This document shows positions 1 through 15,476 of a DNA stretch of 64,000 nt, piece after piece. Numbering within the stretch: the stretch's first letter is position 1; each line of letters begins with the position of its first letter. Location: contig NC_013131.1 in the NCBI RefSeq assembly GCF_000024025.1, positions 248,001-312,000 on the forward strand, given 5' to 3'. The translations under genes were made by a program, and so were the position numbers. Origin of the DNA: Catenulispora acidiphila DSM 44928. GTDB lineage: Bacteria; Actinomycetota; Actinomycetes; Streptomycetales; Catenulisporaceae. A model generated the notes under the pieces. It searched no databases. It saw only the letters and a program-made list of their open reading frames with translations, and was not told the DNA's origin.

Positions 1-1495
1 GATCGACGGCATTCTGGCAGCGTGCGGCGGGGTTCCGCTCGCGCTGCGGATCGTGGCCGCCCGGTGTCGTCCCGACAGCGGTCTGACACCGGCGGACCTG
101 GCGGCGCGGTTGGCGCATCCCCGGTCGCGGCTCACCCATCTCGCCGACAATGAGCGGGCTGTCTCCGATGCCTTCGGCGCCTCACTGGACCTGCTTCCTT
201 CCGCACAGCGCCGGCTGTTCTTGCTGCTCGGCCTGCATCCGGCGAAACCGCTGAGCGGCTGGGCGGCCGCCGCGCTCGCCGACATTCCCGCCGAACAAGC
301 CGAGCGCGGGCTGGAGGAACTGGTCGGAGCCAGCCTGCTGGAGCCTCGTGGGCACGGCCGCTTCCGAGTCCACGACCTGCTAGCGGAGTTCGCGGCTTCG
401 GCCGTCCGGCGGGAACTCCCGGCGACGGAGATTTGGGCGGCGACGGGGCGGATGCTGGACGCGTACGCGGTCACCGCCGAGGCGGCCGACCGGCTGCTCA
501 CCCCCTACCGCCACCGTCTTTCAGCGACTGAGGGCGCCGCGACCGGATCACCGCCGCAGACCTTCGAAGACGACGAACATGCGCGGAGTTGGCTTACTGA
601 TCATCTCGATACCCTCAGCGCGCTGTGCGTGCTCGCCGCCACCGACGGCTGGGACGAGCGGTCGTGGCAGCTGGCCTACTCCCTGCGCGGAGTCTTCTTC
701 CTCGGCCGGCACTGGCGGTTGTGGCGTGCCACGCACGAGGCGGCGCTGCCCGCTGCGGTCCGGGCGGGAAACCGCATCGGCACCGGCATGACCTTGGCCA
801 ACCTCGGTTTCGTGCTGGGCGAGACGCACGACTTCGAGGCGGCCATGACCCACTTGGGTGCCGCTGTGGAGGTGTTCCGGGACATCGGCGACAGACACGG
901 CGAGTTCACGGCGCAATCCCACTTGGCCTGGATCCAGCACTGCACCGGTGACTACCGGGAAGCCCTGGCCGGGCAGACGGCCGCGCTGGAGTTCCGGCAG
1001 GCCGTCGGGACGCCGCGAAATGTGGCGATCATCATGCGCGACATGGCCGCGACCGAGCTCGCCCTGGGGAAGCACGGCGAAGCCCGCGACCACCTCCAGA
1101 CCGCGGTTGCGATGTTCACCGAGTTGGGACTGCGCCTGGATCTGACGATGGCGCTCAACGGCCTCGGCGAACTCGCCGTCCACGAGGGCGACACCCTCCA
1201 GGCCGACGTCCACCACTATGCAGCGCTGAACGCCGCCCGGCGCTCGGGCAGCGTCTTCGAGCAGGCCCGTGCGCACGCTGGACTGGGGCGGTGCGCCGTC
1301 CGCCGAGGCCGCCCGGCGCGCGCGCGGCACCAGCTGACCAGAGCGCTGCGACTTTACGACACATTGGGTGCCGGCCATGTCGCGGCCGCCGTGCACGCCG
1401 AACTCGCCGCGTTGGACGGTGCCGGGATCTCCGCAGCGCGTACCCGCACGCCGGGCACGCCCAGTGCGCCGAGCGCTCCGGGACAGACGCGATGA
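1..1495 (+). CDS. NB-ARC/TPR STAND regulator, 5' end outside window
   Basis: The reading frame is open from position 2, so the gene is cut by the left edge; an internal GTG at 53 is not a credible start. The visible part begins in the GLPL region of an NB-ARC domain (CGGVPLALRIVAARC). A winged-helix segment follows (LLPSAQRRLFLLLGLH, then SLLEPRGHGRFRVHDLLAEFA), then about 300 residues of TPR-like helices. It closely resembles the C-terminal two thirds of the XRE-NB-ARC-TPR protein at 4889-7201, which carries the same CAGVPLALRIAAARC and VLHDLVAEYA signatures, so the two look like paralogues. The family (AfsR-like STAND ATPases) acts as nucleotide-dependent cytoplasmic switches. Its TGA overlaps the ATG of the next gene (ATGA at 1492-1495), which implies translational coupling to the TIR protein. 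The missing N-terminus may be an XRE domain, by analogy only. Confidence 0.85.
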   Translation, partial: IDGILAACGGVPLALRIVAARCRPDSGLTPADLAARLAHPRSRLTHLADNERAVSDAFGASLDLLPSAQRRLFLLLGLHPAKPLSGWAAAALADIPAEQAERGLEELVGASLLEPRGHGRFRVHDLLAEFAASAVRRELPATEIWAATGRMLDAYAVTAEAADRLLTPYRHRLSATEGAATGSPPQTFEDDEHARSWLTDHLDTLSALCVLAATDGWDERSWQLAYSLRGVFFLGRHWRLWRATHEAALPAAVRAGNRIGTGMTLANLGFVLGETHDFEAAMTHLGAAVEVFRDIGDRHGEFTAQSHLAWIQHCTGDYREALAGQTAALEFRQAVGTPRNVAIIMRDMAATELALGKHGEARDHLQTAVAMFTELGLRLDLTMALNGLGELAVHEGDTLQADVHHYAALNAARRSGSVFEQARAHAGLGRCAVRRGRPARARHQLTRALRLYDTLGAGHVAAAVHAELAALDGAGISAARTRTPGTPSAPSAPGQTR

Positions 1496-2529
1496 GCCCT
1501 CAGAAAACAGGCGTCCCGCCGGGCGAGTTCGACATCTTCCTCTCCCTCGGCGGCCCCGACCGGGTCGAGGCGAACCTGCTCAAGGAGGCGCTGGTCAAGG
1601 AAGGGCTGACCGTCTTCATCGACGAGGACGACATCAGGCACTTCGACGGCATCACCCGGGAGATAGAACGGTGCCTGCGATCCTCCCGGGCGCTACTCGC
1701 CTACTACTCCAGAGAGTATCCGCTGCGCTCCGCGTGCCAGTTCGAGCTGACCGCGGCTCTGTTGGCGGGACGGAACGAGCAGGACCCGACGCGGCGGATC
1801 ATCGTCGTCAACCCCGAGGCGACCGAGGATCATATCCAGCCCGCCTACATCAGCGACGCGCGGTTCGCGGTGCGCCCCGGCAGCGACCACGAGCGGAAGG
1901 CTCTGGCGGCGCTGATCAAGCAGAAGGTGGACACGCTCGAAGGACCGCTCAGCTCGATCGCCTTCACCCGACGGCCGCGCTGGTTCGCCTTCCGGATCGC
2001 CGGCGCGCCGGGCTTCGTGGGCCGGTACCGCGAGTTGTGGGAGCTGGACAGTCTACTGACCAAGGCCGCACTGCCGCTCACCCAGGACACGCCGTTCGGG
2101 CCGGTCGCGGTGGTCACGGGAGCCGCGCGGGTCGGCAAGAGCAGCCTGGTGGCGGACTATGCGTGGCAGTTCGGCGCGGCTTTCCGCGGCGGTGTCTATT
2201 GGATCGACATGTCCGGCGTCGAGGGGACCGCGGACCAGGTGCTTGCCGCCTACGCTGACCGAGTCCGCTCGAGCGCCGCAATCGCGGGCCTCGATGTCGC
2301 CGGGCTCAGTCGGGAGCGGATGTTCGGCGTGCTCGGCGATCATCTCGCCGCTACTGCGGAGCCCAGCTTGTGGATTGTCGACGGCCTGCCCGCGGGACTG
2401 GGCGAACAGGCTCCGCACCGTATGATCATCCCGGCTGGCGATCGGGTGCAGACCGTCTTCGTCGGGCGGCGCGACCCGTTCGGTGGGGCGATCCGCGCGA
2501 TGGTGCTCGGCGGCTTGAGCCGGGGATGA
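1492..2529 (+). CDS. TIR-NB-ARC protein, N-terminal part of a frameshifted gene
   Basis: The ATG at 1492 overlaps the upstream stop. Residues 13-95 form a TIR domain (FDIFLSLGG, then FIDEDDIRHFDGI, then CQFEL) with a glutamate at about residue 85 in the position of the TIR NAD-hydrolase catalytic Glu. After a linker comes an NB-ARC P-loop, GAARVGKS (about 210-217), a kinase-2 strand (LWIVDGLP) and a sensor strand (TVFVGRRD). The frame then stops at TGA 2527-2529 within the NB-ARC domain. The +1 frame continues the same domain from 2522 (see 2522-4387), so this is the front of one TIR-NB-ARC-TPR gene of roughly 960 codons. TIR-STAND proteins of this type are candidate NAD-cleaving immune or signalling proteins; that role is inferred from the family. 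If the frameshift is real, the product lacks its sensor TPR region. Confidence 0.85.
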   Translation: MSPQKTGVPPGEFDIFLSLGGPDRVEANLLKEALVKEGLTVFIDEDDIRHFDGITREIERCLRSSRALLAYYSREYPLRSACQFELTAALLAGRNEQDPTRRIIVVNPEATEDHIQPAYISDARFAVRPGSDHERKALAALIKQKVDTLEGPLSSIAFTRRPRWFAFRIAGAPGFVGRYRELWELDSLLTKAALPLTQDTPFGPVAVVTGAARVGKSSLVADYAWQFGAAFRGGVYWIDMSGVEGTADQVLAAYADRVRSSAAIAGLDVAGLSRERMFGVLGDHLAATAEPSLWIVDGLPAGLGEQAPHRMIIPAGDRVQTVFVGRRDPFGGAIRAMVLGGLSRG

Positions 2530-2530
2530 T
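2520..2530 (+). other. One-base frameshift inside the TIR-NB-ARC gene
   Basis: Frame 1 reads GGLSRG then TGA. The +1 frame immediately reads DDARELLGSYRKP, which is the expected continuation (LGGLSR-DDARELL) of an NB-ARC domain. Removing one G from the run in cggggatgat (2520-2529) restores a single open frame from 1492 to 4387. The site shows no standard +1 slippery codon. A real G-run indel or a sequencing error is therefore more likely than programmed frameshifting. Confidence 0.8.
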
Positions 2531-4387
2531 GCCCGGGAACTGCTGGGGTCGTACCGCAAACCCGCCGGTGAACGGGAGGAGGCCGCCCGCGACGAGCTTG
2601 TCGACCGCCTCGGCGGACACGCGGGTGCCCTGGTGCTGGCTGGGGGCCGACTCCAGGATCGTCAAGGGCTGCGCTCGCATGCCGAGGTTTTGGCCGACTT
2701 CGATGGTGTCGCCGACATAGACCGGTTCTTCGGCGTACTGGTCCGGGAGAGCATCGGTGAGTTGGACACAGCCCGGACGCTTGTGCTGGCGGTCGCGTCG
2801 GTCTGCGCCGCGGCCGGCATTCCCGCGGGGCTCCTTGTCCGGGCGGTCGCGACGCTCGCCAATGGCGCGATCGACGCGTCGGCAGTGGGCGACGCCTTAC
2901 GGGGTCTGCAGGCGGCCGGTCTGGCCGCCAACGACGACGGCCGGTGGTCGATCTCCGCGGTCGCCCGGGAACTGGCGCGCGAGCAGAACCCGCCGGGACC
3001 ACGGCGGCAGTACCTCCGGACCGTGGTCGCCGACGCGCTCACACCGATGCTCCAGGATGCCGCCACTTCGCTCGGCGACCGGCCTGGCCTGGTGACACAC
3101 GCAGTTCGGCTGTGTGGCGAGGCCGACCGGAGCGAGGATGCCCGCTGGCTTGCGATCTTGCTGGAACGGCTCGCGGAGCATTATGAGGCGCGCGGTGAGG
3201 CCGCTTCGTCGGCGGTCTACCGGGACCGTCTGCTCGACATCCGCGGGGAGAACACCTCGGACCTGTTTTATGCGGCGCGTGCTGCTCAGGCAGCGCGCGA
3301 ATTCGACAAGGCAGCTGGCCTGGCGCAGCGCGCTCTGTCAGGTGCCGGAAGCGACGAGCCCCAGTTTCGCCGTTGTCGGCTGCTGTTGGCCGAGGCGTTG
3401 GACGGCGCATTGCGGTTTCAGGAAGCTGAAACGTACTGGGAGCACGTGGCGGCGTCGGCCGGCGACCGTGACGCCGGGGAGTCAACAGGACGCGCCGCGG
3501 AGTCGGTCGCGTATGCGAGATCGCGGATCCGACGGGGTGAGCTGCGCAGGGCCAAGCAGGCTTTGAAGTTGCTCATCGAGGAGTACGCACGATCGAGCGG
3601 AGACGTGGAGTTCACGACAGCCGATGCAGTTGGTGGTCAGATCCGAGGCGCGCGCATCGAGTACGCGCACGTGTTGGCGCTGATCGGGGATCAGATCGAG
3701 GCGCGCCGCGTGGCGTCGGAGCTGGTGGCCATCTACCGCGAAGCCGGTCTGCTGCGCCACGCCGACATGGTGCGGGCACAAGAGATCCTGGCCGAGGCGA
3801 AACTGGTGCCACACATCAGGGAACTGCGACTAGACGACACTGCCAGGGCACGGGCGGAGCAGGACATGAAGCAGCTCTGGCAGAAGAACCGAGAGGAAGA
3901 CGGGCCGCGTAGCCCGTCCGCGCTATTCGCGGGGGTGGGCTACGGCCACGCTCTGGTCTCACAGGGACGCAAGGAGAAGGCACGCGACATGCTCGTGGGT
4001 TTGCGCGCAGACGCGATCGCAGTCGGTGGGCCGCGTGATCCCGCGTATTTGCGGGCGACATTCCTGCTGGGGCAGGCATACGCCCAGATGAGGTGCTATC
4101 GAAAGGCGTTGAAGATGTTCCGGTACGCCTACGCGAACCAGCAGGAGATTCTCGGCCCGGCGCACCCGTACACATTGGCGAGCGGGTTCGAGCTGGCCGT
4201 CATGTACAAGACGGTGGGTGAGGACACCGAGGCGGCCAAATTGATCCGCGAACAAGACGCGCTGAGCGCCAAGTCGATGGAGTACTCGAACGATCTCCGC
4301 GCCCAGATCAAGGTCGCCGGATCGCTGATCGCGCTGATTCCTTCGCCGCTGTGGCGGTGGATGCGGGGACCTGAGCGGGATTGCTGA
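2522..4387 (+). pseudogene. C-terminal NB-ARC/winged-helix/TPR part of the frameshifted TIR-STAND gene
   Basis: This frame continues the 1492-2529 product. Translation from 2522 completes the NB-ARC domain (the GLPL-like DRLGGHAGALVLAGGRL), followed by a winged-helix region and about 400 residues of TPR-like helical repeats. The repeats end with an array containing GPAHPYTLASGFELAVMY. The first start codon within this fragment is GTG 2633, but it has no convincing ribosome-binding site and would begin in the middle of a domain. The reading frame therefore looks like the back half of one gene, and independent expression is unlikely. The same layout is seen intact in the minus-strand gene at 7268-10165. 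The gene ends 500 bp before the next start. Confidence 0.75.
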
Positions 4388-4861
4388 CCAGCGCCGAGCG
4401 TTTGATAGCCGGTGTATCCGCGATCGCGGACGGCCGGCTCAGCGTGACCGCACGAGGGCCGCATTGCTCGCGGGCGTCAGGTGCCGTCTTGGTGGTCGTG
4501 GCGATGCTGTGCGCGCACTTCAGGCGTCAATCATTTCCTGTCCGGCACGCCGGGACACCAGATCCCCGAGGGTCCTCGACGACTTCACCCGCCGAGGACT
4601 TCCTGGGCGCACCCGAGGTGTGTGACTGCTCTACCGGTCGCAGCACTGACCTTGGCCGTCGATGGGGCCTGAGGCATACTCCGCCAGGGGAGGATCGTCC
4701 GGGGGACCATACATAGCCCACTCCTGCTCTTCAGAAAATCAAACCGCACGTGGATTCGGCGGTCGGAGCCGCCAGGACTCCCGCGAAATACGCTCGCAAA
4801 ACACGTGCGGCGCGAATATTGGTGCAGTGGTGGCACAGCGGTGCGCCACCACTAAGGCACC
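4388..4861. other. Intergenic region before the XRE-STAND gene
   Basis: About 470 bp with no convincing gene; the short frames here lack coding character. A possible promoter is TTGGCC, a 17-base spacer, then CATACT (about 4651-4679), which is a weak match. The right end holds the inverted repeat at 4826-4853. GC content is visibly lower than in the neighbouring genes. Confidence 0.5.
4826..4853. promoter_or_regulatory. 28-bp inverted repeat upstream of XRE-STAND gene
   Basis: AGTGGTGGC and GCCACCACT are perfect 9-bp arms around a 10-bp centre. The repeat ends 35 bp before the preferred ATG (4889). Its position directly ahead of a gene whose product starts with an XRE DNA-binding domain suggests an autoregulatory operator. 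The alternative is an mRNA hairpin in the 5' UTR. Confidence 0.5.
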
Positions 4862-4888
4862 ATGGCGTGGGGATCAGAGAGGGGGGAG

Positions 4889-7201
4889 ATGCGGCCCGAA
4901 TGGGACAGGTACGCCCAACGTCTCAAAGCCTTGCGGAGCGAACAGGGGCTGAGCCAGCGGCGTCTGGCGCGGGCTCTACATGTGGACCATAGCGTGATCT
5001 CGCGTGCGGAGAGTGCCGTCCGTCGTCCCGATCCCGACCTCGCGGCCTCGATCGACCTGCTGCTGAGCACGGGTGGCGAGTTGCAGCGGTTGGCTCGGGA
5101 CGCGGTGCGAAAGCAGGCGTCGGCCGACTCACTATCGACGCGTGGGGGTCCTTCTGGTGCGGTCCCGCGGTTGCGATCGTCTATACCGCCCGACTCCGTG
5201 CACTTCACTGGTAGGAACGCGGAGTTTGACCAGGTGCGATCAGAGCTCGTCGAACGGCCCGACGCGGTCGGCGCCGCGAGCGTCTGCGTGATCAGCGCGC
5301 TGGCCGGTGTGGGCAAGACAGCGCTCGCCATCCACAGCGCGCACCGCCTCGCCGGCCGTTTTCCGGACGGATGTCTGTTCCTCGATCTGCGTGGCTTCAC
5401 TCCCGGACACGCGCCGCTGAGCAGCTTCGAGGCGCTGGGAGCTCTGCTCGCCTTGCTGGATGTCCCGGTCGCCACCATCCACAGCACCGAGCCGGCGCGC
5501 TCGGCGCAGTTCCAGGCGGAGACCGCCGGCGCGCGGCTGCTGCTGGTGCTAGACAACGCCGCTGACGCACATCAGGTACGACTGCTCTTGCCATCGGCGC
5601 CTGGCTGCCGGGTATTGGTGACGAGCCGGAACCGCCTTGTGGCCCTTGACGAGGCCGTGCATCTCGACCTGCGGCCCCTTGCCGAGGTTGATGCCGCCGC
5701 GCTGTTCCGCATGGTGTCGGCCGGCGGTCGTGTCTCGCAGAGCACTGTCGACGGTATCGTCGCGCGCTGTGCCGGCGTCCCATTGGCGTTGCGGATCGCG
5801 GCGGCACGCTGCGCTCCCGGCGGCGCGTTCGATCCGGAACTGCTCGCCGCCGAGCTGTCGCGCGCGGAGGACTTCATCGGGCAGCTGGACGACGGGGAAC
5901 GCAGCGTGCGTGCGGTGTTCGATGCCTCGTTCTCCTTGCTGCCCCGAGAGCTGCGGCAGGTGCTTGCTCTGCTCGGCACCCGTCTGCTGACCGTCTTCGA
6001 CATTTGGGACGTCGCAATGCTCGCCGACCTCCCGCTCCTCGGCGCGGCTGGCGCGTTGGAACGGCTGCACGCGGCGAGTCTGCTTGAAGTGCGCGGCACT
6101 GATCGTTTCGTCCTGCACGATCTGGTCGCCGAGTACGCGATATCCGCCGCCGGACAGACGCTCGGCGCCGAGCAGCTGCGGGCCGCAATCGGACGCTTGC
6201 TCGACGCCTATCTGCGCGTCTGTGACAGGGCCGACTCACAGGTCACGCCGCATCGGCACCGCTTCCCGCTCGCGGTGGCGGCAGCCGGAGCTGTGCCAGA
6301 CCCGGACTTCAGTGACTACTACGAGGCCCTCGACTGGCAGACCAAGCATCTCGACACGGCCGCGGCGCTGTGCGAAACCGCCTACGAGCACGGTTTCGAC
6401 GAACAGTGCTGGCAACTCGCCTACGCGCTGCGCGGGGTCTTCTTCCTCACCAAGCACTGGGAGCAGTGGGATCGTATCCAGCGCATCGCGCTGGCGGCGA
6501 CAAGACGGCTCCAAGACCCGCACGCCGAGTGCGTGACTCTGAACAACCTCGGCCTCATCCTCGGTGAACGGGGCGAGACCGACGCCGCGCACCGCTGCCT
6601 CAACGAGGCCGAAAGCGTGTGCCGCGCCGCCCGTGATCGCTTCGGCGAGAACACCGCACGCGCCCACAGGGCCTGGCTCTTCCACACGGCCGGACGGCAT
6701 GGCGAGTCCCTGACCGAGCACGAGGGCGTCCTCGAGTTCTACACGCAGATCGACAGCCCTCGCAATGTGGCCATCGTGATGCGCGACATGGCCGCATCCG
6801 AAGCCGCTCTAGGCCACACCGACAGTGCCCTCGCGCACTTGCACGCGGCCGAGCAGGCCTTTCGCAAATTGGATCTGACGATGGACCTGGCCATGGCCCT
6901 GAACGACCTCGGCGAGACCTACACAGCGATCATCGACCCGAAACGCGCCGCCGAGTACTTCGAAGCAGCGCTGGCAGCCTGCGCGGAGTCCGGCAGCGAT
7001 CATGAACGGGCTCGAGCGCACGCCGGCCTCGGCGCCCTGGCGGAGTCCGCAGGCCGGCAGAACTGGGCGAACGCACACTACCTTCAGGCCCTGAGGCTGT
7101 TCGATGCGCTCGGCGCTCCGGCGGCGGACGTGGTGCGCGCTCGGCTGCACGCGTCGACTGTCATGTTCCCGACCACCGCTGAGGAGGACGAGAACCGCTG
7201 A
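4889..7201 (+). CDS. XRE-NB-ARC-TPR STAND regulator
   Basis: The start is ATG 4889, directly behind a GA/G-rich Shine-Dalgarno stretch (agaggggggag); an in-frame ATG at 4862 has no such site. Residues 8-55 are an XRE helix-turn-helix (LSQRRLARALHVDHSVISRAE). Residues 105-400 are an NB-ARC ATPase: Walker A AGVGKT at about 139-144, kinase-2 RLLLVLDNAAD, sensor VLVTSRNR and GLPL CAGVPLALRIAAARC. A winged helix and about 300 residues of TPR repeats follow. The product is 770 residues. The layout is that of SARP-less AfsR-like STAND proteins, in which an ATPase switch couples ligand sensing by the TPRs to DNA binding. It is a paralogue of the gene truncated at position 1. It converges on the minus-strand TIR-STAND gene 66 bp downstream. 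The ligand and target genes are unknown. Confidence 0.9.
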   Translation: MRPEWDRYAQRLKALRSEQGLSQRRLARALHVDHSVISRAESAVRRPDPDLAASIDLLLSTGGELQRLARDAVRKQASADSLSTRGGPSGAVPRLRSSIPPDSVHFTGRNAEFDQVRSELVERPDAVGAASVCVISALAGVGKTALAIHSAHRLAGRFPDGCLFLDLRGFTPGHAPLSSFEALGALLALLDVPVATIHSTEPARSAQFQAETAGARLLLVLDNAADAHQVRLLLPSAPGCRVLVTSRNRLVALDEAVHLDLRPLAEVDAAALFRMVSAGGRVSQSTVDGIVARCAGVPLALRIAAARCAPGGAFDPELLAAELSRAEDFIGQLDDGERSVRAVFDASFSLLPRELRQVLALLGTRLLTVFDIWDVAMLADLPLLGAAGALERLHAASLLEVRGTDRFVLHDLVAEYAISAAGQTLGAEQLRAAIGRLLDAYLRVCDRADSQVTPHRHRFPLAVAAAGAVPDPDFSDYYEALDWQTKHLDTAAALCETAYEHGFDEQCWQLAYALRGVFFLTKHWEQWDRIQRIALAATRRLQDPHAECVTLNNLGLILGERGETDAAHRCLNEAESVCRAARDRFGENTARAHRAWLFHTAGRHGESLTEHEGVLEFYTQIDSPRNVAIVMRDMAASEAALGHTDSALAHLHAAEQAFRKLDLTMDLAMALNDLGETYTAIIDPKRAAEYFEAALAACAESGSDHERARAHAGLGALAESAGRQNWANAHYLQALRLFDALGAPAADVVRARLHASTVMFPTTAEEDENR

Positions 7202-7267
7202 TGCCCGCGACGTTCCACCACGCACCGAAAGACGAGGATCTGCGCGGGTCGGTTTCGCATGACGAGT

Positions 7268-10165
7268 TCAGTCGTCGAACGCCAGCCGTTCTGCCCAGTC
7301 GATGAGTCGGTCCACCACGGCCAGGTCCGCTTCGGGGCAACCGAGCACGACCCGCATGCCTTCGGCGGCGTCGCGCAGCACGTTCAGACCGTCATCGATC
7401 TGACTGTCCAGCTGGCCCAGGCAGACGGTCGCGTGGCCGAGACACGTCTCGGCGAAGAGAGTCTCGGGGTGGTCTGTGCCGAACTCCGCGACCAGTGCTC
7501 CGTGCAGGTACGAAGCGAGTTCGAAGTCCTCGACACGCTCGTCGGTCGTTTCGTCGTCGAGTCGGACCGCGACCTCCGTCCAATCACCAGGAGGTTCTTG
7601 AACCGGCTCCGAGAAGACACGGTTCACGGAGTCTGATGGAGGGTTGGCGGTGGATACGTGGACGCTCCGCAGGTTGATGATCAGGTTCCGCAGGGTGCGA
7701 CGGGCGGCAGGAGAGCCGGGATCGGCGTGGGTGACACGCTTGCGATACACGGCGCGGAGTTCAGCAGTCCGGGCCTCAGGGTCCGCGCAAACGGCGGCGA
7801 ACTCGAGAGCGCTGAGAGCGTCGGGGTGAGAAGGTCCGTAGATGGCTCTGCGCACGTCGTAGGCCTCCTGGAACAATGCGCGCGCGGCGGCCGAATTCCC
7901 CGCTCGATAATGGCTGACGGCGAGCGAGCTGATCGCGTCGGCGAGCTGCGGGTCATCAGGCCTCAGATACCGCCGACTCGCCGCAACGACCCTCGTCCTG
8001 AGACGCAACGCCAGACTCTCGTGTCCATCAAGCTCGCGAGCCGTCGCGTACGCGTTCAACGAAGCGAGCGTCGCGGGGTGCGAAGGCCCGCGGCGCTTGA
8101 GATGGGTGGCATAGATCTGCCGGTGGAGTACTCGGGCCTTCGCATAGTCGCCGAGCTCGCCGAATGTGACAGCCACGTTGTTCAGGGCGGTCAGCGTCGC
8201 TTCCTCATCCGCGCCCTCGACGCGCGCGAGCACCTCATAGGCACGCGTCTTGAAGTCCAGTGCGAGCTCGTGCTGACCTAGCAGGCCGTAGGCGACGCCG
8301 AGACCCACCAGCCCTGCCTGCGTGGCGAAATCGTCCTCGCCGAGTGACTCCCGGCACGCCTGATAGAGCCGCTCGAACATCGCCAGCGCGGCCCGCTCGT
8401 CGCCGAGGCCGACCTGGACGCGTCCCGCCTCGTTCAGCAGGCTCTGCTGGGCCACGTCGGTCGCGCCACCGGCGACGGCACGCACGTGCGGCAAATAGTC
8501 CACGATGCCGTCCCGCCCGCGCTCGAGAATCTCCCCGAGCGCCTCGACGGACCTGGCCCGCAGCTGCTCACGGTCGCCGCTGCCGAACCGGTCGCGGAAC
8601 CGCACCGCACGGCTCACCAGTGAATGCACGCTCCACAAGGTCCCGAACGTGCCTACCGTCACCGTGGCCAACGCCAGTGCGGCGCACTCTCGAAGCGCGT
8701 CGTCAACCGTCATCCCCGGACGTGTGCTGTCGAGCCGCCGACTGTCGCCGAGTACGCTGTCGAACATCGCCGCAGGAACGGGTGCGGCCGCAAGAATGCT
8801 TGCCAGCAGCAATACCTCATATGCCGCCGACGAAAGCCTCGCCAGCGACCGCATCATCGCCGCCGCCACACTGCCTTGATGGTCCGTGGCGATCTCGTGC
8901 TCCCGCGCCGCCGCCCACTCGAGTGCGTCGCGATCGGGGTCGGCCAGTTCTGTGCGAACCTGGTCGAGCTCAGCTGTCCCGTTATTGTCCAGTGTTCGGG
9001 CGACCAGCGCGACCGCCATGGCGTGGTGACCGAGATCGGCCGCAAGCCGACGCGCCGAAGCGATCGTCGCCCGATCAGCCCTCGCGCCGGCGCCTCCCAG
9101 CAAAATCCTCACCGCCGCAGACTCGCCGAGTGGCCCCAGCTCGACTGTCTCGCCGACGAATCCACGATGCGCGTGGCGTGATGTGACAAGCGTGCGCCCG
9201 CGAGCCGTCGGAGCGAGGAACTCGCGAACACCGATCGGCCCGACATGATCCGGCAGATCGTCGACGATCCAAAGGTAGTCCTGGTCGGCCCTCTCCAGGT
9301 GGTCCCGAATCACCGACCGCGCCGAGCGATCAGCCGAACGTCCTTCGACCTCGGCCGGCACCCCCGGCAACTCCTCGGCGATCCGTGCCAGCTGCTGTTC
9401 GAGCGCTGTCCTGAGCAAGGCAGGTGAGCTGTTCGCATTTCGGTGACTACCGAATCCCCGCAGAACGAAGACCCCACCAGGATGGTCCGCTGCGAACCAT
9501 CGCGCGTACTGCTCGGCAAGCATCGTCTTGCCCTGGCCACCCATGCCCACGATGCGCGCCAGCCGCTGCCCCGGCTGTGCCGCGTCATCCCGTCCGGCCA
9601 ACGCGTCGTGCAGATCCCACAGCTCTGTCGCACGGCCGTGAAAGGCAGGTTCCGCGACGGTCGGAAACGGATACCAATTCGGCGGCCCAGGCTCAGAGGC
9701 GATCCCGAACGGCCTGTCGTCGATCTCCTCCAATCGCTCTGCGACCACCGCGGCGAGTGCATCCGGGCCGGTGGAACGCGCGGGAAGTCGCTTGTCCTGC
9801 AGCGCCCGCGGCCGAACGGCTTCGTAGGGCAGCTCCCTGACAACGGGGAGGATTCGGCGCACGTCGCCGTCGAGGCGATACGCCGCGGTCATCGCGTGAG
9901 CGAGTTCCAGCCGGCAGTATGCGCTCTCCGGGAACTGGGGCGTATAGAGCGCCACAAAACTGCGAGATCCAGCGAGCGCGGCGAACACTTCCGTGCCGAT
10001 GTCGTCGAAGTCCCGCATGCCGGTCTCGTCGCGGAAGACCTGCAAACGTCGCGCCTCCAAGGCTGCGACGAGTATCAACGCCTCGGCCAAGTTCTTCCAC
10101 GAGTAACTGAAGAAGACGTCGTATACGGCTTCGTTCTCGCCGCCGTCCCGCACCGGCGCTGTCAT
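7268..10165 (-). CDS. TIR-NB-ARC-TPR STAND protein (965 aa)
   Basis: The start is ATG 10165, which overlaps the stop of the upstream XRE gene (ATGA) and so implies coupling; the frame stays open 43 codons further upstream, but those overlap that gene. Residues 14-100 form a TIR domain (YDVFFSYSWKN, then FRDETGMRDFDDI, then YCRLEL) with the putative catalytic Glu at about 87. Residues 165-500 are an NB-ARC domain: P-loop GMGGQGKT (207-214), kinase-2 YLWIVDDLP and sensor TLVTSRHA. Residues 600-965 are TPR repeats of kinesin-light-chain type (GPSHPATLASLNAYA, GPSHPDALSALEFA). It matches the broken gene at 1492-4387 domain for domain. TIR-STAND proteins often act as NADases triggered by ligand binding to the repeats; activity here is inferred. 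It is a candidate antiviral or stress sensor. Confidence 0.9.
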   Translation of the reverse strand: MTAPVRDGGENEAVYDVFFSYSWKNLAEALILVAALEARRLQVFRDETGMRDFDDIGTEVFAALAGSRSFVALYTPQFPESAYCRLELAHAMTAAYRLDGDVRRILPVVRELPYEAVRPRALQDKRLPARSTGPDALAAVVAERLEEIDDRPFGIASEPGPPNWYPFPTVAEPAFHGRATELWDLHDALAGRDDAAQPGQRLARIVGMGGQGKTMLAEQYARWFAADHPGGVFVLRGFGSHRNANSSPALLRTALEQQLARIAEELPGVPAEVEGRSADRSARSVIRDHLERADQDYLWIVDDLPDHVGPIGVREFLAPTARGRTLVTSRHAHRGFVGETVELGPLGESAAVRILLGGAGARADRATIASARRLAADLGHHAMAVALVARTLDNNGTAELDQVRTELADPDRDALEWAAAREHEIATDHQGSVAAAMMRSLARLSSAAYEVLLLASILAAAPVPAAMFDSVLGDSRRLDSTRPGMTVDDALRECAALALATVTVGTFGTLWSVHSLVSRAVRFRDRFGSGDREQLRARSVEALGEILERGRDGIVDYLPHVRAVAGGATDVAQQSLLNEAGRVQVGLGDERAALAMFERLYQACRESLGEDDFATQAGLVGLGVAYGLLGQHELALDFKTRAYEVLARVEGADEEATLTALNNVAVTFGELGDYAKARVLHRQIYATHLKRRGPSHPATLASLNAYATARELDGHESLALRLRTRVVAASRRYLRPDDPQLADAISSLAVSHYRAGNSAAARALFQEAYDVRRAIYGPSHPDALSALEFAAVCADPEARTAELRAVYRKRVTHADPGSPAARRTLRNLIINLRSVHVSTANPPSDSVNRVFSEPVQEPPGDWTEVAVRLDDETTDERVEDFELASYLHGALVAEFGTDHPETLFAETCLGHATVCLGQLDSQIDDGLNVLRDAAEGMRVVLGCPEADLAVVDRLIDWAERLAFDD

Positions 10166-11667
10166 GAGAGCGACGCCTCCTGATCGGCCTCCAGCAGCCG
10201 CTTGAAACGCCGTAGCGGGCCAGAGCGAGGCGTCCGGGTGGGGAGCTCTGCCGCATGCCGAGACGTGTGCCCGAGCCACGTCAACGACCGCCAAGCCAGC
10301 CGCACCTGGTCATCGACAAGCCCGTCGGGAATCTGAGGACGCAGCGGATCCAAGGCACCACTGGGACGACGGCACCGGATCGTGAGATCCTCTCGGCCCC
10401 GTTCGGCCGAGATAGTCTCCGCCCGGGCACGCAGGGCCTCCTCAATGTGGTCGAACCCTGCTTCGATTTGCTTCCGCAACGCCAACGCGGTCGACTTGTA
10501 CTCGCGTTCGCACGACAAGCCGATTTGCCGTTCCGTCCACCAGTCCAGAACAGCCTCATGCGGCCGCGCGTAGACGATCCTGGCCGGCGTGCGGCGTAGC
10601 TGCTCCAACGCACCGTGGTCCGGCGAGCCGTCCGGCGTGAGAAACGAATGGGGACGTGCCGCGAGCACCGCGGGCCAGGGCCTGCCCGCCGCATGCGACC
10701 GGCCCACGTGCTCCGCCACCTCCCGCCACGCCTCGGCCGGACCGCTGAGCCAGTCCCGCCTCGTGGCGACCACCTGCCCGCTCCGGTCGATGACCGTGCC
10801 GGAGTGCACGAGCACGAACTGCCATCCGAGCGCCCCGGCAAGCATCGCGGCAGCCATACTCGAGCTGTACCGGCCGCCGATCAGGACCAGCGGACGCTGA
10901 TCCCGGCAGCTCCAGCCATCGGCCGCGGCTTCGGTGGACCGGCCGCTCACGATGTCCTGCACGAGGATCTGCGCGGGCCACCGGTCGGCGGCAGGACGCC
11001 ATGTCTGCGAACCGGCGTCACCCTGCCAGCTGTACTGCCCGAACCAGCGCAGCGGCTCGGCTACGAACGCGGCCAGTTCCAAACGCACCGCACAGTAATC
11101 CGGGTGGCGCCGCAGCATCGCGGCGCTCGGCGACGGCACGATGCGAGCCATCCCGGCCAGCCGCTCCACGTCAGCCAACGCTGGTACAGCGGCGCCCGGT
11201 ATCAACAGGAACTGCGCCGCGACGTCGGTGGTGAGTGGATAGCTTCCGTGTGACTCCAGTGCCAGCAACCGAACGGCATACCGCGCCCGCATGGTCTCGT
11301 CATGAAGCAGCGCGTGGACCGCGGCTTCGGGCGCGTACATCTGGTCACCGCCGCCACCGGCGCCACTTCGACCTGGATCGACGTCGGACTCGTCGAGCCA
11401 GCCCGCGTCGACGAACGCCTCAATCGGACTGACTCCCGCAAACCGGGCCAAGTCCCGCACCCGATCCGGACCCGGATTGCGCCGTCCGCTGAACCATGAA
11501 CGTACCGTCTCCGCGCTGACCCCGAAGTACCGCGCGACGGCGGCTTGGGTCAGCTCCCTGCCGGTCGACCGTAGATGGCCGTCGGTGATCCGCCGCATCA
11601 TCCGCTCGATCTGGTCCGCGCGCGGTACGGAGCCCGCGGGGCGCTCCTGCGGGTCGAGGCCGGCCAT
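10162..11667 (-). CDS. XRE-family protein (501 aa) coupled to TIR-STAND gene
   Basis: The start is ATG 11667, preceded by a good GGAGGT Shine-Dalgarno; an in-frame start at 11781 has none. Residues about 38-85 form a helix-turn-helix (TQAAVARYFGVSAETVRSWFSGRRNPG). The remaining 400 residues match no family I can name. They include a Rossmann-like stretch, PLVLIGGRYSSSMAAAMLAG, then WQFVLVHSGTVID, followed by a basic helical tail. The stop overlaps the ATG of the TIR-NB-ARC-TPR gene, so the two proteins are probably made together. The protein could be a repressor of the pair or a DNA-bound partner of the sensor. The function of the large C-terminal region is unknown. The 234-bp gap to the oxygenase gene at 11902 is a shared divergent promoter region with a weak TTGGG/CCCAA inverted repeat at 11687-11705. 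Confidence 0.85.
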   Translation of the reverse strand: MAGLDPQERPAGSVPRADQIERMMRRITDGHLRSTGRELTQAAVARYFGVSAETVRSWFSGRRNPGPDRVRDLARFAGVSPIEAFVDAGWLDESDVDPGRSGAGGGGDQMYAPEAAVHALLHDETMRARYAVRLLALESHGSYPLTTDVAAQFLLIPGAAVPALADVERLAGMARIVPSPSAAMLRRHPDYCAVRLELAAFVAEPLRWFGQYSWQGDAGSQTWRPAADRWPAQILVQDIVSGRSTEAAADGWSCRDQRPLVLIGGRYSSSMAAAMLAGALGWQFVLVHSGTVIDRSGQVVATRRDWLSGPAEAWREVAEHVGRSHAAGRPWPAVLAARPHSFLTPDGSPDHGALEQLRRTPARIVYARPHEAVLDWWTERQIGLSCEREYKSTALALRKQIEAGFDHIEEALRARAETISAERGREDLTIRCRRPSGALDPLRPQIPDGLVDDQVRLAWRSLTWLGHTSRHAAELPTRTPRSGPLRRFKRLLEADQEASLS

Positions 11668-11901
11668 GGGACCTCCGGTACAGAAGTTGGGAATCCGGTA
11701 CCCAATCTCGGTCGCCGGATGGTCGCTGGAACATTCCGCGAAGCGAGAATCGGAGCGAGTGAGAATCCTGGTTCGCCTCACGATATCCGGCCACGGGGAC
11801 TGGCTGAAGCGGTAGGAGAGCCGGACGACGGCTCGGCACGGCGCACTGGCGGGTGAGGGGAGCGGCCAGTGCGTCTCCGCTTCGCGAAATCGGGAGAAGA
11901 C

Positions 11902-12978
11902 ATGAAGAACCTGTCTGCGTATGAAGTGTATGAATCGCCGAAGACCAGCGGAGAGTCACGTACCGAAGCCGTTTCGGAGGCCGCCTTCGAATCCGACCCC
12001 GAAGTGAGCGCAATCCTAGTCCTGACCTCCTCCGAAGCCTCGACGCTGGAGCGCGTCGCCGACCTCGTGACCGCGCACGCGCTGTATGCCGCTCACGATT
12101 TCTGTGCCCAGGCCCAGCTGGCCGCCGCCGAACTGCCGTCGCGGGTCGTTGCCCGGTTGCAGGAGTTCGCCTGGGGCGACATGAACGAGGGCCACCTTCT
12201 GATAAAAGGCCTGCCGCAGGTCCGCTCCCTGCCACCGACACCGACGTCCAACGTGCACGCCGTCGCCGCGACGACGCCGATGTCGCGCTACCAGGCCCTC
12301 ATCAATGAGTGCGTGGGGCGCATGATTGCCTACGAGGCCGAGGGGCACGGCCACACCTTCCAGGACATGGTCCCGAGCGCCATGAGCGCGCACTCGCAGA
12401 CCAGTCTCGGCTCGGCGGTTGAGCTCGAACTGCACACCGAGCAGGCCTTCAGTCCGCTGCGTCCGGACTTCGTCAGCCTGGCCTGTCTTCGCGGCGATCC
12501 ACGAGCCCTGACTTACCTGTTCTCGGCCCGGCAACTGGTCGCGACGCTGACGACACAGGAAATCGCCATGCTGCGCGAGCCCATGTGGACCACCACCGTC
12601 GACGAGTCCTTCCTGGCGGAGGGGCGTACGTTCCTGCTCGGCTTCGAGCGCGGTCCGATCCCGATATTGAGCGGTGCCGACGACGATCCGTTCATCGTCT
12701 TCGACCAGGATCTGATGCGGGGGATCTCGGCGCCCGCGCAGGAACTCCAACAGACTGTGATCCGCGCCTACTATGCCGAGCGCGTCAGCCACTGCCTCGC
12801 ACCCGGTGAGATGCTCCTCATCGACAACCGGCGCGCCGTCCACGGCAGGTCGATCTTCGCCCCGCGTTTCGACGGCGCTGACCGGTTCCTTTCCAGAAGC
12901 TTCATCGTGGCCGACGGATCGCGCAGTCGGCACGCGCGTTCTTCCTTCGGCCGCGTCGTCTCTGCGAGGTTCAGCTGA
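11902..12978 (+). CDS. Fe(II)/2-oxoglutarate oxygenase, clavaminate synthase/AsnO/VioC-like
   Basis: The preferred start is ATG 11902, preceded by GGGAGAAG; an in-frame ATG at 11869 would add 11 residues. The facial triad is visible as LHTEQAF (His178, Glu180) and AVHGR (His314), with the 2-oxoglutarate-binding Arg at about 328 (DRFLSRSF). This spacing and the following PLRPDFVSLACLRGDP closely resemble AsnO and VioC, which hydroxylate free L-asparagine and L-arginine at C-beta. The expected reaction is hydroxylation or desaturation of a free amino acid with O2 and 2-oxoglutarate; the substrate cannot be read from sequence. TGATG overlap with the next gene implies coupled translation with an AlaX-like editing protein. 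There is no adjacent NRPS. It is divergent from the XRE/TIR-STAND operon. Confidence 0.85.
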   Translation: MKNLSAYEVYESPKTSGESRTEAVSEAAFESDPEVSAILVLTSSEASTLERVADLVTAHALYAAHDFCAQAQLAAAELPSRVVARLQEFAWGDMNEGHLLIKGLPQVRSLPPTPTSNVHAVAATTPMSRYQALINECVGRMIAYEAEGHGHTFQDMVPSAMSAHSQTSLGSAVELELHTEQAFSPLRPDFVSLACLRGDPRALTYLFSARQLVATLTTQEIAMLREPMWTTTVDESFLAEGRTFLLGFERGPIPILSGADDDPFIVFDQDLMRGISAPAQELQQTVIRAYYAERVSHCLAPGEMLLIDNRRAVHGRSIFAPRFDGADRFLSRSFIVADGSRSRHARSSFGRVVSARFS

Positions 12979-13880
12979 TGAGCGACTCGTTCTGCTCTAC
13001 TGTCGTCACATTTCCTGAGGGCGCGATCGAAGCCTCGTCGACGATCGTTCACATCCAGCGTGTCCTCGGTCTGGACCCGAAGGCGACGCACTGGGCCGTC
13101 TTCACGGAGGCGACACCGTTTCATCCGGTCGACCCCACATGGCCGGACCAACCGGGGGACACCGGGGTGTTGCTGACCGACGTCGGCGAGCTGCCGGTCA
13201 CCGGATGCGTGACCGCTGCGGTCGCCCGGGCGGGAGGCGAGCTTCTCGTGGACGCGGAGATCACTGCGAAGCGCGGCGATCCTGAGTACGCCTGGCTCGT
13301 CTGCCATCTCGTGGCCGACAGGGCTGGGGACCTGCCCGGCCGGCTCGTCGGCACGGCGGCGAAACTGCTGGTTGATCGGAGGCGGCGGCGTCGGCTCAGC
13401 GTCGCGCACACTGCGTGCCACCTGACAGGTCTCGCGCTGAATGTGAACCTTGCCGATCGGTGGCGCAAGCCGATCAGAACCGACGGTCTCGGACGTCCCG
13501 ACTTCGACGGCGTGGCGATCGTGTCGTCCCGGATCGCCGAGGACGGCGCCATGGACACCTACCGGTTGGGCACGTCGTTGCGGAAGGCGGGCTTCGTCAG
13601 CGAGGGGTTCGCGGACGGTGTGTCGGCGCTGCAATCGGCTATCGAAACATCCGTAGCGGAGTGGGTAAGACAGGCTGGACAGATCACCGTTCTGACAAAA
13701 GGGTCGGCACTGCACGACCGTCGCACGTGGGAATGCGTCCTTCAGGAGGGAACCGCGCGCACGTCCTGCGGAGGAACCCATCCGCAGAACACCGGCGAAC
13801 TGGGCTCTGTGACTGTGCGGTGCGCCTTCGACCCGGATACCAAGCTTCTCACCGTCGCTACGACGGTTGTGCCGTCGTGA
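12978..13880 (+). CDS. AlaX-like aminoacyl-tRNA editing-domain protein
   Basis: The ATG at 12978 overlaps the oxygenase stop (TGATG). Residues 35-75 resemble the barrel segment of alanyl-tRNA synthetase editing proteins (FHP, then QPGDTGVLL). The zinc site of the AlaX/ThrRS second additional domain is complete: HTACH (His144, His148) and CGGTH (Cys264, His268). AlaX proteins hydrolyse mischarged tRNA such as Ser-tRNA(Ala) in trans. There is no aminoacylation domain, so this is a freestanding deacylase, 300 residues long. Pairing with a free-amino-acid oxygenase suggests removal of a hydroxylated amino acid from tRNA, or a biosynthetic step on an aminoacyl substrate. Both ideas are inference. 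Its GTGA overlap with the next gene makes a three-gene coupled unit. Confidence 0.8.
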   Translation: MSDSFCSTVVTFPEGAIEASSTIVHIQRVLGLDPKATHWAVFTEATPFHPVDPTWPDQPGDTGVLLTDVGELPVTGCVTAAVARAGGELLVDAEITAKRGDPEYAWLVCHLVADRAGDLPGRLVGTAAKLLVDRRRRRRLSVAHTACHLTGLALNVNLADRWRKPIRTDGLGRPDFDGVAIVSSRIAEDGAMDTYRLGTSLRKAGFVSEGFADGVSALQSAIETSVAEWVRQAGQITVLTKGSALHDRRTWECVLQEGTARTSCGGTHPQNTGELGSVTVRCAFDPDTKLLTVATTVVPS

Positions 13881-14500
13881 ACATCGTATTTCCGCCGGTG
13901 GCGCGTGCGCGTGTGTGCTTGGCTACGTGGCAGCAGTTCTACGAGGATCCGTTCCGTCCGCTTGAGGATTTGCTTGCTGATACGTGCGCCACTCTGCTGT
14001 CGGCCCAGAATCGGGGCGACCGGCCGGCGATGAGGGAGACGGTCGTGGGCTGGCGGGATCGGTTGGAGCGGGCCTTGCAGGAACGCGAGGACGTCATGGC
14101 CGGTCTGGATCCGCTGGTCCGGAAGCATGCGTTCGCGAGCTGGCCCACGGCTTTGACCGTGCTTCGCGTCTCTGCGGCCGCGGCTGACGCGAACCCCAAC
14201 GAGCCCCCCTTCTGGTCGCCGCCGAATGCAGAGTCGGTACTCGTCGACGTTGGTGCGGGAATCACAGCGTTCGAGGTCGGGATCCGCGCGGACAATTGTC
14301 GACGGCGGTCCGCGGCGTTGGCGTGGTGGCGTTGTGCGGCGGCCACCGGGCATGCACGCGCCGCGTTCGAGCTTGGCCAGGAGGCGCGGATACGGTGCGA
14401 TATCGACGGCGCGATGATGTGGTTGCGACAGGCGTCGGACAGCGGGTATGAAGCGGCTGGAAAGCTGATTGCGGCGCTCGGTGGGTCGTCAAGACTCTGA
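13877..14500 (+). CDS. Sel1-repeat protein
   Basis: The GTG at 13877 overlaps the previous stop (GTGA), which fixes the start although the frame is open much further upstream. The product is 207 residues. The N-terminal 130 residues are helical and unrecognised. Residues about 140-200 contain Sel1-like repeats (ALAWWRCAAATGHARAAFELG and MMWLRQASDSGYEAAGKL), helical hairpins that mediate protein contacts. It is the last gene of the oxygenase/AlaX unit and may be an adaptor. Its link to the chemistry of the first two genes is inferred only from the overlaps. Confidence 0.75.
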   Translation: MNIVFPPVARARVCLATWQQFYEDPFRPLEDLLADTCATLLSAQNRGDRPAMRETVVGWRDRLERALQEREDVMAGLDPLVRKHAFASWPTALTVLRVSAAAADANPNEPPFWSPPNAESVLVDVGAGITAFEVGIRADNCRRRSAALAWWRCAAATGHARAAFELGQEARIRCDIDGAMMWLRQASDSGYEAAGKLIAALGGSSRL

Positions 14501-15348: not shown

Positions 15349-15369
15349 GCTCTTACGTAACGTAAGAGC
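15349..15369. promoter_or_regulatory. 21-bp perfect palindrome beside tRNA-Ser
   Basis: The arms GCTCTTACGT and ACGTAAGAGC match perfectly around a single central A. It lies 22 bp beyond the 3' end of the tRNA gene. The TTACGTaACGTAA core looks like a TetR-type operator. A one-base loop makes it a poor terminator as written. No gene start lies close by, so its target is unclear. Confidence 0.4.
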
Positions 15370-15391
15370 ACAGGTCATAACCTGCTGACAG

Positions 15392-15476
15392 CGGAGGATG
15401 TGGGATTCGAACCCACGGTGGCTCGCGCCACTTTGGTTTTCAAGACCAACGCCTTCGGCCGCTAGGCAAATCCTCC
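15392..15476 (-). tRNA. tRNA-Ser(UGA)
   Basis: Read on the minus strand, a 7-bp acceptor stem (GGAGGAT with ATCCTCC) and discriminator G enclose a D arm (GCCTAGCGGCC). The anticodon arm is TTGGT-CTTGAAA-ACCAA, giving anticodon TGA. A long class II variable arm and a T arm with GGTTCGAATCC follow. The CCA is not encoded. The 3' end points toward the accessory island on the left, the usual geometry for integration at tRNA genes. Confidence 0.95.

What the first reader, a model, noticed from the sequence alone, without database searches (positions are those of the whole stretch)
1..11667. Duplicated TIR-STAND and XRE-STAND cluster, a candidate NLR-like sensing module
Four NB-ARC/TPR genes lie side by side. 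In copy 1 an NB-ARC-TPR gene (ending 1495) overlaps a TIR-NB-ARC-TPR gene. In copy 2 an XRE-NB-ARC-TPR gene (4889-7201) faces an intact TIR-NB-ARC-TPR gene (7268-10165) that is coupled to a large XRE protein. Both TIR domains keep the putative catalytic Glu. Seen: domains, order and overlaps. Known: TIR and STAND proteins act in bacterial immunity and as regulators. Inferred: paired sensor (TIR) and transcriptional (XRE) STANDs act together, with copy 2 inverted.
Basis: partly seen in the sequence, partly recalled or inferred. Interest (0 to 1): 0.75.

Follow-up and report, generated by a model that had tools for sequence, protein, structure and literature searches.

The report
TIR-STAND/SIR2 genomic island at tRNA-Ser
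In the soil bacterium Catenulispora acidiphila, a cluster of plant-NLR-like TIR and DNA-binding STAND genes is the core of a 23-kilobase foreign island inserted at a transfer-RNA gene, together with a SIR2-like enzyme and membrane proteins; it looks like an acquired NAD-based immune island, though the TIR/XRE pairing itself is not conserved elsewhere and one of the two TIR genes is broken.

Summary
The four NB-ARC/TPR genes are real, and the truncated first one proves to be a second XRE-NB-ARC-TPR gene once its upstream DNA is read. So two XRE-STANDs (A, C) and two TIR-STANDs (B, D) lie side by side. A and C are clear duplicates (about 45% identical; 100/99 support). B and D are not shown to be: B's TIR is nearer to lone Streptomyces TIR-STANDs than to D, although sisterhood is not rejected (AU p 0.12). 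B is broken by a frameshift. "Copy 2 inverted" is wrong: only D is inverted, and it is coupled to E, not to C. None of ten sampled TIR-STAND relatives has an XRE-STAND neighbour.

New here: the cluster sits in a ~23.1-kb island at the 3' end of tRNA-Ser(TGA), bounded by a 51-bp direct repeat and absent from four congeners. The island also carries a membrane/SIR2-like/membrane operon. One Streptomyces carries homologues of that operon with an E homologue next to it, without the STANDs. E is an XRE protein whose C-terminal domain models as a shikimate-kinase-like fold lacking the Walker-A lysine.

Best reading: an acquired NLR-like, NAD-targeting defence island under XRE control. No activity was tested.

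The parts
1..1495 (+). Gene A: XRE-NB-ARC-TPR STAND (792 aa); starts 883 bp before the window (L006 11117-13495)
   Evidence: nearest relative of gene C (45%, 100/99 support)
1492..2529 (+). Gene B, first part: TIR + first half of NB-ARC; ATGA overlap with A; putative catalytic Glu85
2530..4387 (+). Gene B, remainder in another frame: rest of NB-ARC and TPRs; frameshift located between 2516 and 2527
4862..7201 (+). Gene C: XRE-NB-ARC-TPR STAND (779 aa)
7268..10165 (-). Gene D: intact TIR-NB-ARC-TPR STAND (965 aa), putative catalytic Glu87; converges on C, coupled to E
10162..11667 (-). Gene E: XRE HTH + C-terminal P-loop-kinase-like domain lacking the Walker-A lysine; first gene of the E-D operon (ATGA overlap)
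11869..12978 (+). Island cargo: Fe(II)/2-oxoglutarate oxygenase, TauD/clavaminate synthase/GntD-like (relation to the STANDs unknown)
   Evidence: inside island bounds
12978..13880 (+). Island cargo: weak AlaX/tRNA_SAD-like protein
13880..14500 (+). Island cargo: ORF of unknown function
15365..15415 (.). Right end of the island: copy of a 51-bp direct repeat (44/51 identical, 18-bp exact core) whose other copy lies at genome 240287-240337 (L006 4287-4337), 7.7 kb left of the window
15391..15476 (-). tRNA-Ser(TGA): insertion site of the island at its 3' end

Best explanation
The cluster is the core of a laterally acquired, ~23-kb defence-type island integrated at tRNA-Ser(TGA) of Catenulispora acidiphila. 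D is an NLR-like receptor-effector: the TPR region senses an invader- or stress-derived signal, the NB-ARC domain oligomerises on nucleotide exchange, and the clustered TIR domains cleave NAD+, killing or arresting the cell (inferred from family knowledge). A separate operon of membrane protein, SIR2-like protein and membrane protein gives a second, probably NAD-consuming, envelope-linked arm (inferred). A, C and E are DNA-binding controllers: A and C are duplicated AfsR/HaaT-like XRE-STAND switches, and E is an XRE protein with a degenerate P-loop-kinase-like domain, likely to bind a nucleotide or metabolite. They would tune expression of the effectors, E by translational coupling directly upstream of D. 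B is a decaying second TIR-STAND. Shown: domains, gene order, the A/C sister relation, the B frameshift, couplings, island bounds, absence in congeners, and the SIR2/membrane/E set in a Streptomyces. Not shown: any biochemical activity, the trigger, or joint action.
For: TIR, NB-ARC and TPR domains; TIR Glu conserved against plant NLR TIRs. SIR2-like motifs GAGxS, NFDD, H and GYSGSD conserved between the own protein and its G101 homologue; hhalign to SIR2_2-containing proteins probability 73%, E 3.2e-5 over the SIR2 core. Island: 51-bp direct repeat including the tRNA-Ser 3' end, 61.7 bits against at most 31.0 in 100 shuffles; four congeners join the same left flank to the tRNA-Ser/thymidine kinase flank within about 1-3 kb; D, E, SIR2 and close A/C relatives were not found in the nine other Catenulispora genomes searched. 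Homologues of the membrane/SIR2/membrane operon (43-50% identity for the two best) with a divergent E homologue occur as a compact set in one Streptomyces-family genome, G101. E homologues recur beside STAND genes (Actinospica L080, actinomycete MAG L084) or near SIR2 (Acrocarpospora L081). E C-terminal model pTM 0.84, best match shikimate kinase Z 11.5.
Against: No member reaches a cut-off of an NCBIfam defence family, and PADLOC hits are weak and generic. The SIR2 call is below the Pfam cut-off. The SIR2/membrane/E set was seen in only one other genome, and the STANDs are absent there. XRE-STANDs of this type are usually read as transcriptional regulators of metabolism (HaaT/AfsR). The island also carries oxygenase and AlaX-like genes that fit metabolism rather than defence. 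TIR function is assumed from the family. No integrase was found.
Confidence: 0.5

Rival explanations
1. The genes are unrelated cargoes that accumulated at a tRNA-Ser integration hotspot. The TIR-STAND and the SIR2 operon may each act in defence on their own, and the XRE-STANDs are bystanders; there is no joint module.
For: TIR-STAND relatives are lone genes; E and the first membrane protein occur in many unrelated neighbourhoods; no TIR/XRE pairing found elsewhere.
Against: ATGA coupling of A-B and E-D and recurrence of the membrane/SIR2/membrane operon beside E in G101 argue for sub-units that belong together.
Confidence: 0.28
2. The XRE-STANDs are AfsR/HaaT-like regulators of secondary metabolism or development, and the TIR domain acts as a scaffold; the adjacent oxygenase and AlaX-like genes are the target pathway.
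For: Best NCBIfam matches of A and C are HaaT and AfsR; the genome has more than 25 further paralogous NB-ARC genes; an oxygenase of the VioC/GntD/clavaminate-synthase group follows E.
Against: All scores lie far below the equivalog cut-offs; no biosynthetic enzymes besides the oxygenase were recognised; the TIR Glu is conserved in both TIRs; the island includes a SIR2-like gene.
Confidence: 0.17
3. The whole array is a decaying relic: B is already broken, the integrase is gone, and the rest is no longer functional.
For: B frameshift; no integrase found in the island; decayed left repeat.
Against: A, C, D, E and the SIR2 operon are intact long ORFs.
Confidence: 0.05

Closest known systems
Bacterial and plant TIR-NB-ARC-TPR proteins (TNP architecture; PMC9806590)
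   Same: Same order TIR, NB-ARC, TPR; actinobacteria are a main home of such NB-ARC domains according to that paper; TIR Glu kept.
   Different: D is coupled to an XRE/pseudo-kinase protein and sits in an island with SIR2 and XRE-STANDs; its TIR is only 34-39% identical to the lone bacterial relatives compared.
STAND-based multi-gene conflict systems of multicellular bacteria (PMC7159879, PMC8195603)
   Same: STAND NTPases with TPRs, NAD-targeting effectors and accessory regulators clustered in filamentous actinobacteria.
   Different: No effector-associated domains, vWA/MoxR or trypsin components recognised by the family searches here; XRE DNA-binding STANDs are central.
AfsR / HaaT NB-ARC-TPR regulators (NF053617, NF041717)
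   Same: NB-ARC-TPR core of A and C (E down to 6e-87 for HaaT).
   Different: Far below equivalog cut-offs; XRE HTH instead of the SARP-type N-terminus of AfsR; no biosynthetic cluster of that type recognised.
FxSxx-COOH systems (FxsT NF040586, FxsC NF040588)
   Same: D's TPR half resembles FxsT (184 bits) and its TIR resembles FxsC (29 bits).
   Different: Below the cut-offs (300 and 130); no FxsB-type gene recognised in the island.
SIR2 and TIR NADase defence (Thoeris, DSR, short Ago, AVAST)
   Same: TIR and SIR2 effector families, STAND sensor logic.
   Different: No system-level match in PADLOC; no SLOG, Argonaute or Avs component recognised.

Membership tests
TIR-NB-ARC-TPR (TNP-type) STAND | TIR, NB-ARC and TPR domains in this order in one protein | tested here: met
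   D: TIR_2 9.9e-13, AAA_16 over the P-loop (below its own cut-off), TPR_12 2.2e-26; relative L069 hits NB-ARC above its cut-off. B the same but split by a frameshift.
TIR-NB-ARC-TPR (TNP-type) STAND | conserved TIR catalytic glutamate | tested here: met
   D E87 and B E85 align with the Glu of L6 'WCLMEL'
TIR-NB-ARC-TPR (TNP-type) STAND | NADase activity / cell death on activation | not testable with these tools
   needs bench assay
tRNA-integrated genomic island | direct repeats, one overlapping a tRNA 3' end | tested here: met
   51-bp repeat, 44/51 identical, 61.7 bits against 31.0 maximum in 100 shuffles
tRNA-integrated genomic island | sporadic: empty site in close relatives | tested here: met
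   4 congeners have conserved flanks joined within about 1-3 kb
tRNA-integrated genomic island | integrase gene | tested here: not met
   only a Mutator-family transposase identified; no integrase seen in ORF lists and family scans; so filed as an island by bounds and empty sites, not as a self-mobile element
Thoeris | ThsA (SIR2-SLOG) with ThsB TIR | tested here: not met
   SIR2-like protein has no PADLOC hit; D has only a weak ThsB-like hit, E 9e-4
AfsR / HaaT regulators | score above the NCBIfam equivalog cut-off | tested here: not met
   C: 293 of 1125 bits (HaaT), 225 of 1430 (AfsR)
FxSxx-COOH system | FxsT above cut-off, with FxsB radical SAM and FxsA peptide | tested here: not met
   D 184.5 of 300 bits; no radical SAM gene recognised in the island; FxsA peptide not searched systematically
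SIR2-like proteins (second operon) | SIR2 core with NAD-site motifs | tested here: inconclusive
   motifs conserved, hhalign probability 73%, but Pfam SIR2_2 14 of 24.5 bits
P-loop small-molecule kinases (E C-terminal domain) | shikimate/NMP-kinase fold | tested here: inconclusive
   model pTM 0.84, Z 11.5 over 159 residues; predicted model only
P-loop small-molecule kinases (E C-terminal domain) | Walker A GxxxxGK[ST] | tested here: not met
   lysine absent at the aligned glycine-rich loop in all 10 sequences

The most novel reading that the evidence does not exclude
A new composite immune module: XRE-STAND sensors and an XRE/pseudo-kinase regulator control two NAD-targeting arms (a TIR-STAND and a membrane-associated SIR2), carried as an island at tRNA-Ser. 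The SIR2/membrane/XRE set would be a new defence system in its own right, shared between a Streptomyces-family genome and Catenulispora.
Probability: 0.25. Interest if true: 0.75.

Novelty: new variant of a known kind. Interest (0 to 1): 0.52.

Why it matters
TIR-NB-ARC-TPR proteins are the bacterial counterparts of a plant immune-receptor architecture, but few are tied to a defined mobile unit or to regulators. Here an intact one is translationally coupled to a DNA-binding protein with a degenerate kinase-like domain and lies within sharp island boundaries together with a SIR2-like operon. The island can be deleted or moved as one piece, which makes the question of how bacterial NLR-like proteins are kept silent and switched on directly testable. 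The membrane/SIR2/membrane/XRE set is a compact candidate defence system that none of the family libraries used here recognises.

Tried and rejected
Duplicated TIR/XRE pair as the unit: rejected as stated, since B and D are not nearest relatives by identity or in the best tree (not rejected by AU, p 0.117) and no pairing was found elsewhere. Sequencing error as the cause of the B frameshift: unlikely with Sanger-only data of stated error below 1e-5, but not excluded. Known systems (Thoeris, Avs, FxS, AfsR/HaaT): scores below cut-offs. Full-length E model (pTM 0.48): fold matches weak and mixed (GDSL, SDR and HTH folds), so set aside in favour of the C-terminal domain alone. One-protein scan of genome contigs with E, viral contigs with D and plasmids with SIR2 and E: no matches. 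The first membrane protein has lone homologues in other actinomycetes and in Nonomuraea, uninformative for function. More copies of the SIR2 set: none in another 202 genomes near G101, and phylum sampling with E found none.

Full report
What is there. The window lies at bases 248001-312000 of a single 10,467,782-bp contig, the size published for the type strain of Catenulispora acidiphila (PMC3035231). Reading 12 kb upstream completes gene A, which the window cuts: it is a 792-aa XRE-NB-ARC-TPR protein. The order is A (XRE-STAND, +), B (TIR-STAND, +), C (XRE-STAND, +, 4862-7201), D (TIR-STAND, -, 7268-10165), E (XRE protein, -, 10162-11667). A/B and E/D each share an ATGA start-stop overlap, so A-B and E-D are probable operon pairs; C and D converge. 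Immediately left of A, on the other strand, is a further operon with overlapping genes: a 303-aa protein (MEM303), a 619-aa SIR2-like protein and a 535-aa protein (MEM535). MEM303 and MEM535 are called membrane proteins from hydrophobic stretches seen by eye; no transmembrane predictor was run.

Domains. Pfam and NCBIfam give TIR_2, AAA_16/NB-ARC and TPR_12 in the expected places. D's TIR finds flax L6, RUN1 and other TIR structures in the PDB, and D Glu87 and B Glu85 align with the Glu of the L6 'WCLMEL' motif; that this Glu is the catalytic one is established knowledge of TIR NADases. B is not one open frame: its first frame ends at 2527-2529, the continuing frame has a stop at 2516-2518, and the GC3 signal jumps frame between them. 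The genome was sequenced by Sanger only with a stated error below 1 in 100,000, so this is probably a real lesion.

Relationships. C against its own genome finds A at 548 bits and 45% identity; the next paralogue scores 217 bits. In a tree of 30 NB-ARC regions A and C are sisters with 100/99 support. D against its own genome finds B first, but at only 30%. B's TIR is 39-46% identical to ten lone TIR-STANDs from Streptomyces-family genomes and Alphaproteobacteria and only 34% to D. The best tree puts B and D apart, although a tree uniting them is not rejected (p-AU 0.117). The XRE genes are therefore duplicates; a duplication of the pair is not shown. None of the eight loci of the same order with a TIR-STAND relative shows a neighbouring XRE-STAND within about 8 kb, nor do the two alphaproteobacterial plasmid loci.

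The island. In four other Catenulispora genomes the genes left of this region (own genome 214-233 kb) run on, within about 1-3 kb, to the same tRNA-Ser(TGA) and thymidine kinase that lie right of it. A 51-bp direct repeat (44/51 identical, with an 18-bp exact core) stands at genome 240287-240337 and at window 15365-15415; the latter covers the 3' end of tRNA-Ser 15391-15476. The match scores 61.7 bits against at most 31.0 in 100 shuffles. The segment between the repeats is about 23.1 kb and contains a Mutator-family transposase, the SIR2 operon, A to E, an oxygenase related to GntD/clavaminate synthase/VioC, a weak AlaX-like protein and one ORF of unknown function. No integrase was seen. Matches to D, E, SIR2 and close A/C homologues are missing from the nine other Catenulispora genomes searched. 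This is a tRNA-targeted genomic island by repeats and empty sites, lacking its integrase.

A portable subset. One genome of the Streptomyces family (G101) holds homologues of MEM303 (50%), SIR2 (43%) and MEM535 in the same order and orientation, with an E homologue divergently adjacent, and none of the STAND genes (the E homologue appears frameshifted in that assembly). No third copy was found among about 200 further genomes. The SIR2 assignment rests on conserved GAGxS, NFDD, His and GYSGSD motifs and a profile comparison at 73% probability, since Pfam is below cut-off. E homologues are scattered over Streptomycetales and Streptosporangiales. In two loci they stand directly before an XRE-nSTAND1-WD40 gene (the XRE part read by eye) and in one within a few kb of a SIR2_2 gene; elsewhere they stand by a protein kinase and an FHA-like or unnamed gene, or alone.

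Gene E. The full-length model is weak (pTM 0.48), but residues 240-500 alone give pTM 0.84. The closest solved structures are shikimate kinases (Z 11.5, 159 residues, rmsd 3.3 A) followed by adenylate and gluconate kinases. The glycine-rich loop (GGRYSSSMA here, GGRHGTGPA in relatives) aligns where the P-loop would be but lacks the lysine in all ten sequences. E is thus probably an XRE regulator with a catalytically dead kinase-like sensor domain; this is inference from a predicted model.

Mechanism. The best-supported reading is an acquired NLR-like island: D senses through its TPRs, assembles through NB-ARC and cleaves NAD+ through TIR; the SIR2 operon is a second arm; A, C and E regulate; B is decaying. 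Steps shown are sequence, order, ancestry and island structure. All activities are inferred. The main rival is independent cargo at a tRNA hotspot.

Novelty. The parts are of known kinds: TIR-NB-TPR proteins occur in bacteria and fungi, with many related NB-ARC domains in actinobacteria, according to PMC9806590, and STAND conflict systems of multicellular bacteria are described in PMC7159879 and PMC8195603. The combination, the coupling of a TIR-STAND to an XRE/pseudo-kinase, and the SIR2/membrane/E set are not recognised as systems in PADLOC, NCBIfam or PHROGs and were not found in the papers searched. I therefore rate it a new variant of a known kind.

Noticed in passing
window 11869-13880: An Fe(II)/2-oxoglutarate oxygenase (GntD/clavaminate synthase/VioC-like) directly followed by a weak AlaX/tRNA_SAD-like protein, overlapping at the stop codon: possibly an enzyme making a hydroxylated amino acid together with a tRNA-editing or self-protection protein. 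Inside the island.
   Followed up: no
L006 4287-4337 and window 15365-15415: 51-bp direct repeat at the tRNA-Ser 3' end marking both island ends; no integrase found between them.
   Followed up: yes
L095 13400-19457 (G101): Compact membrane/SIR2/membrane operon with divergent XRE-pseudokinase gene, a candidate defence system with no library match; E homologue looks frameshifted in this assembly.
   Followed up: partly
L066 6666-10753, L086 (same contig as L067), L084 1-3843: E homologues next to a Ser/Thr protein kinase and a gene with a weak FHA hit (L084) or an unnamed gene of similar size: another recurrent neighbourhood of this regulator family.
   Followed up: no
L109 9600-18736 (G755): MEM303 homologue within 10 kb of a radical SAM gene, an NB-ARC-TPR gene, a SIR2_2 gene and a further gene of about 700 aa: another NAD/STAND-type neighbourhood.
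   Followed up: no
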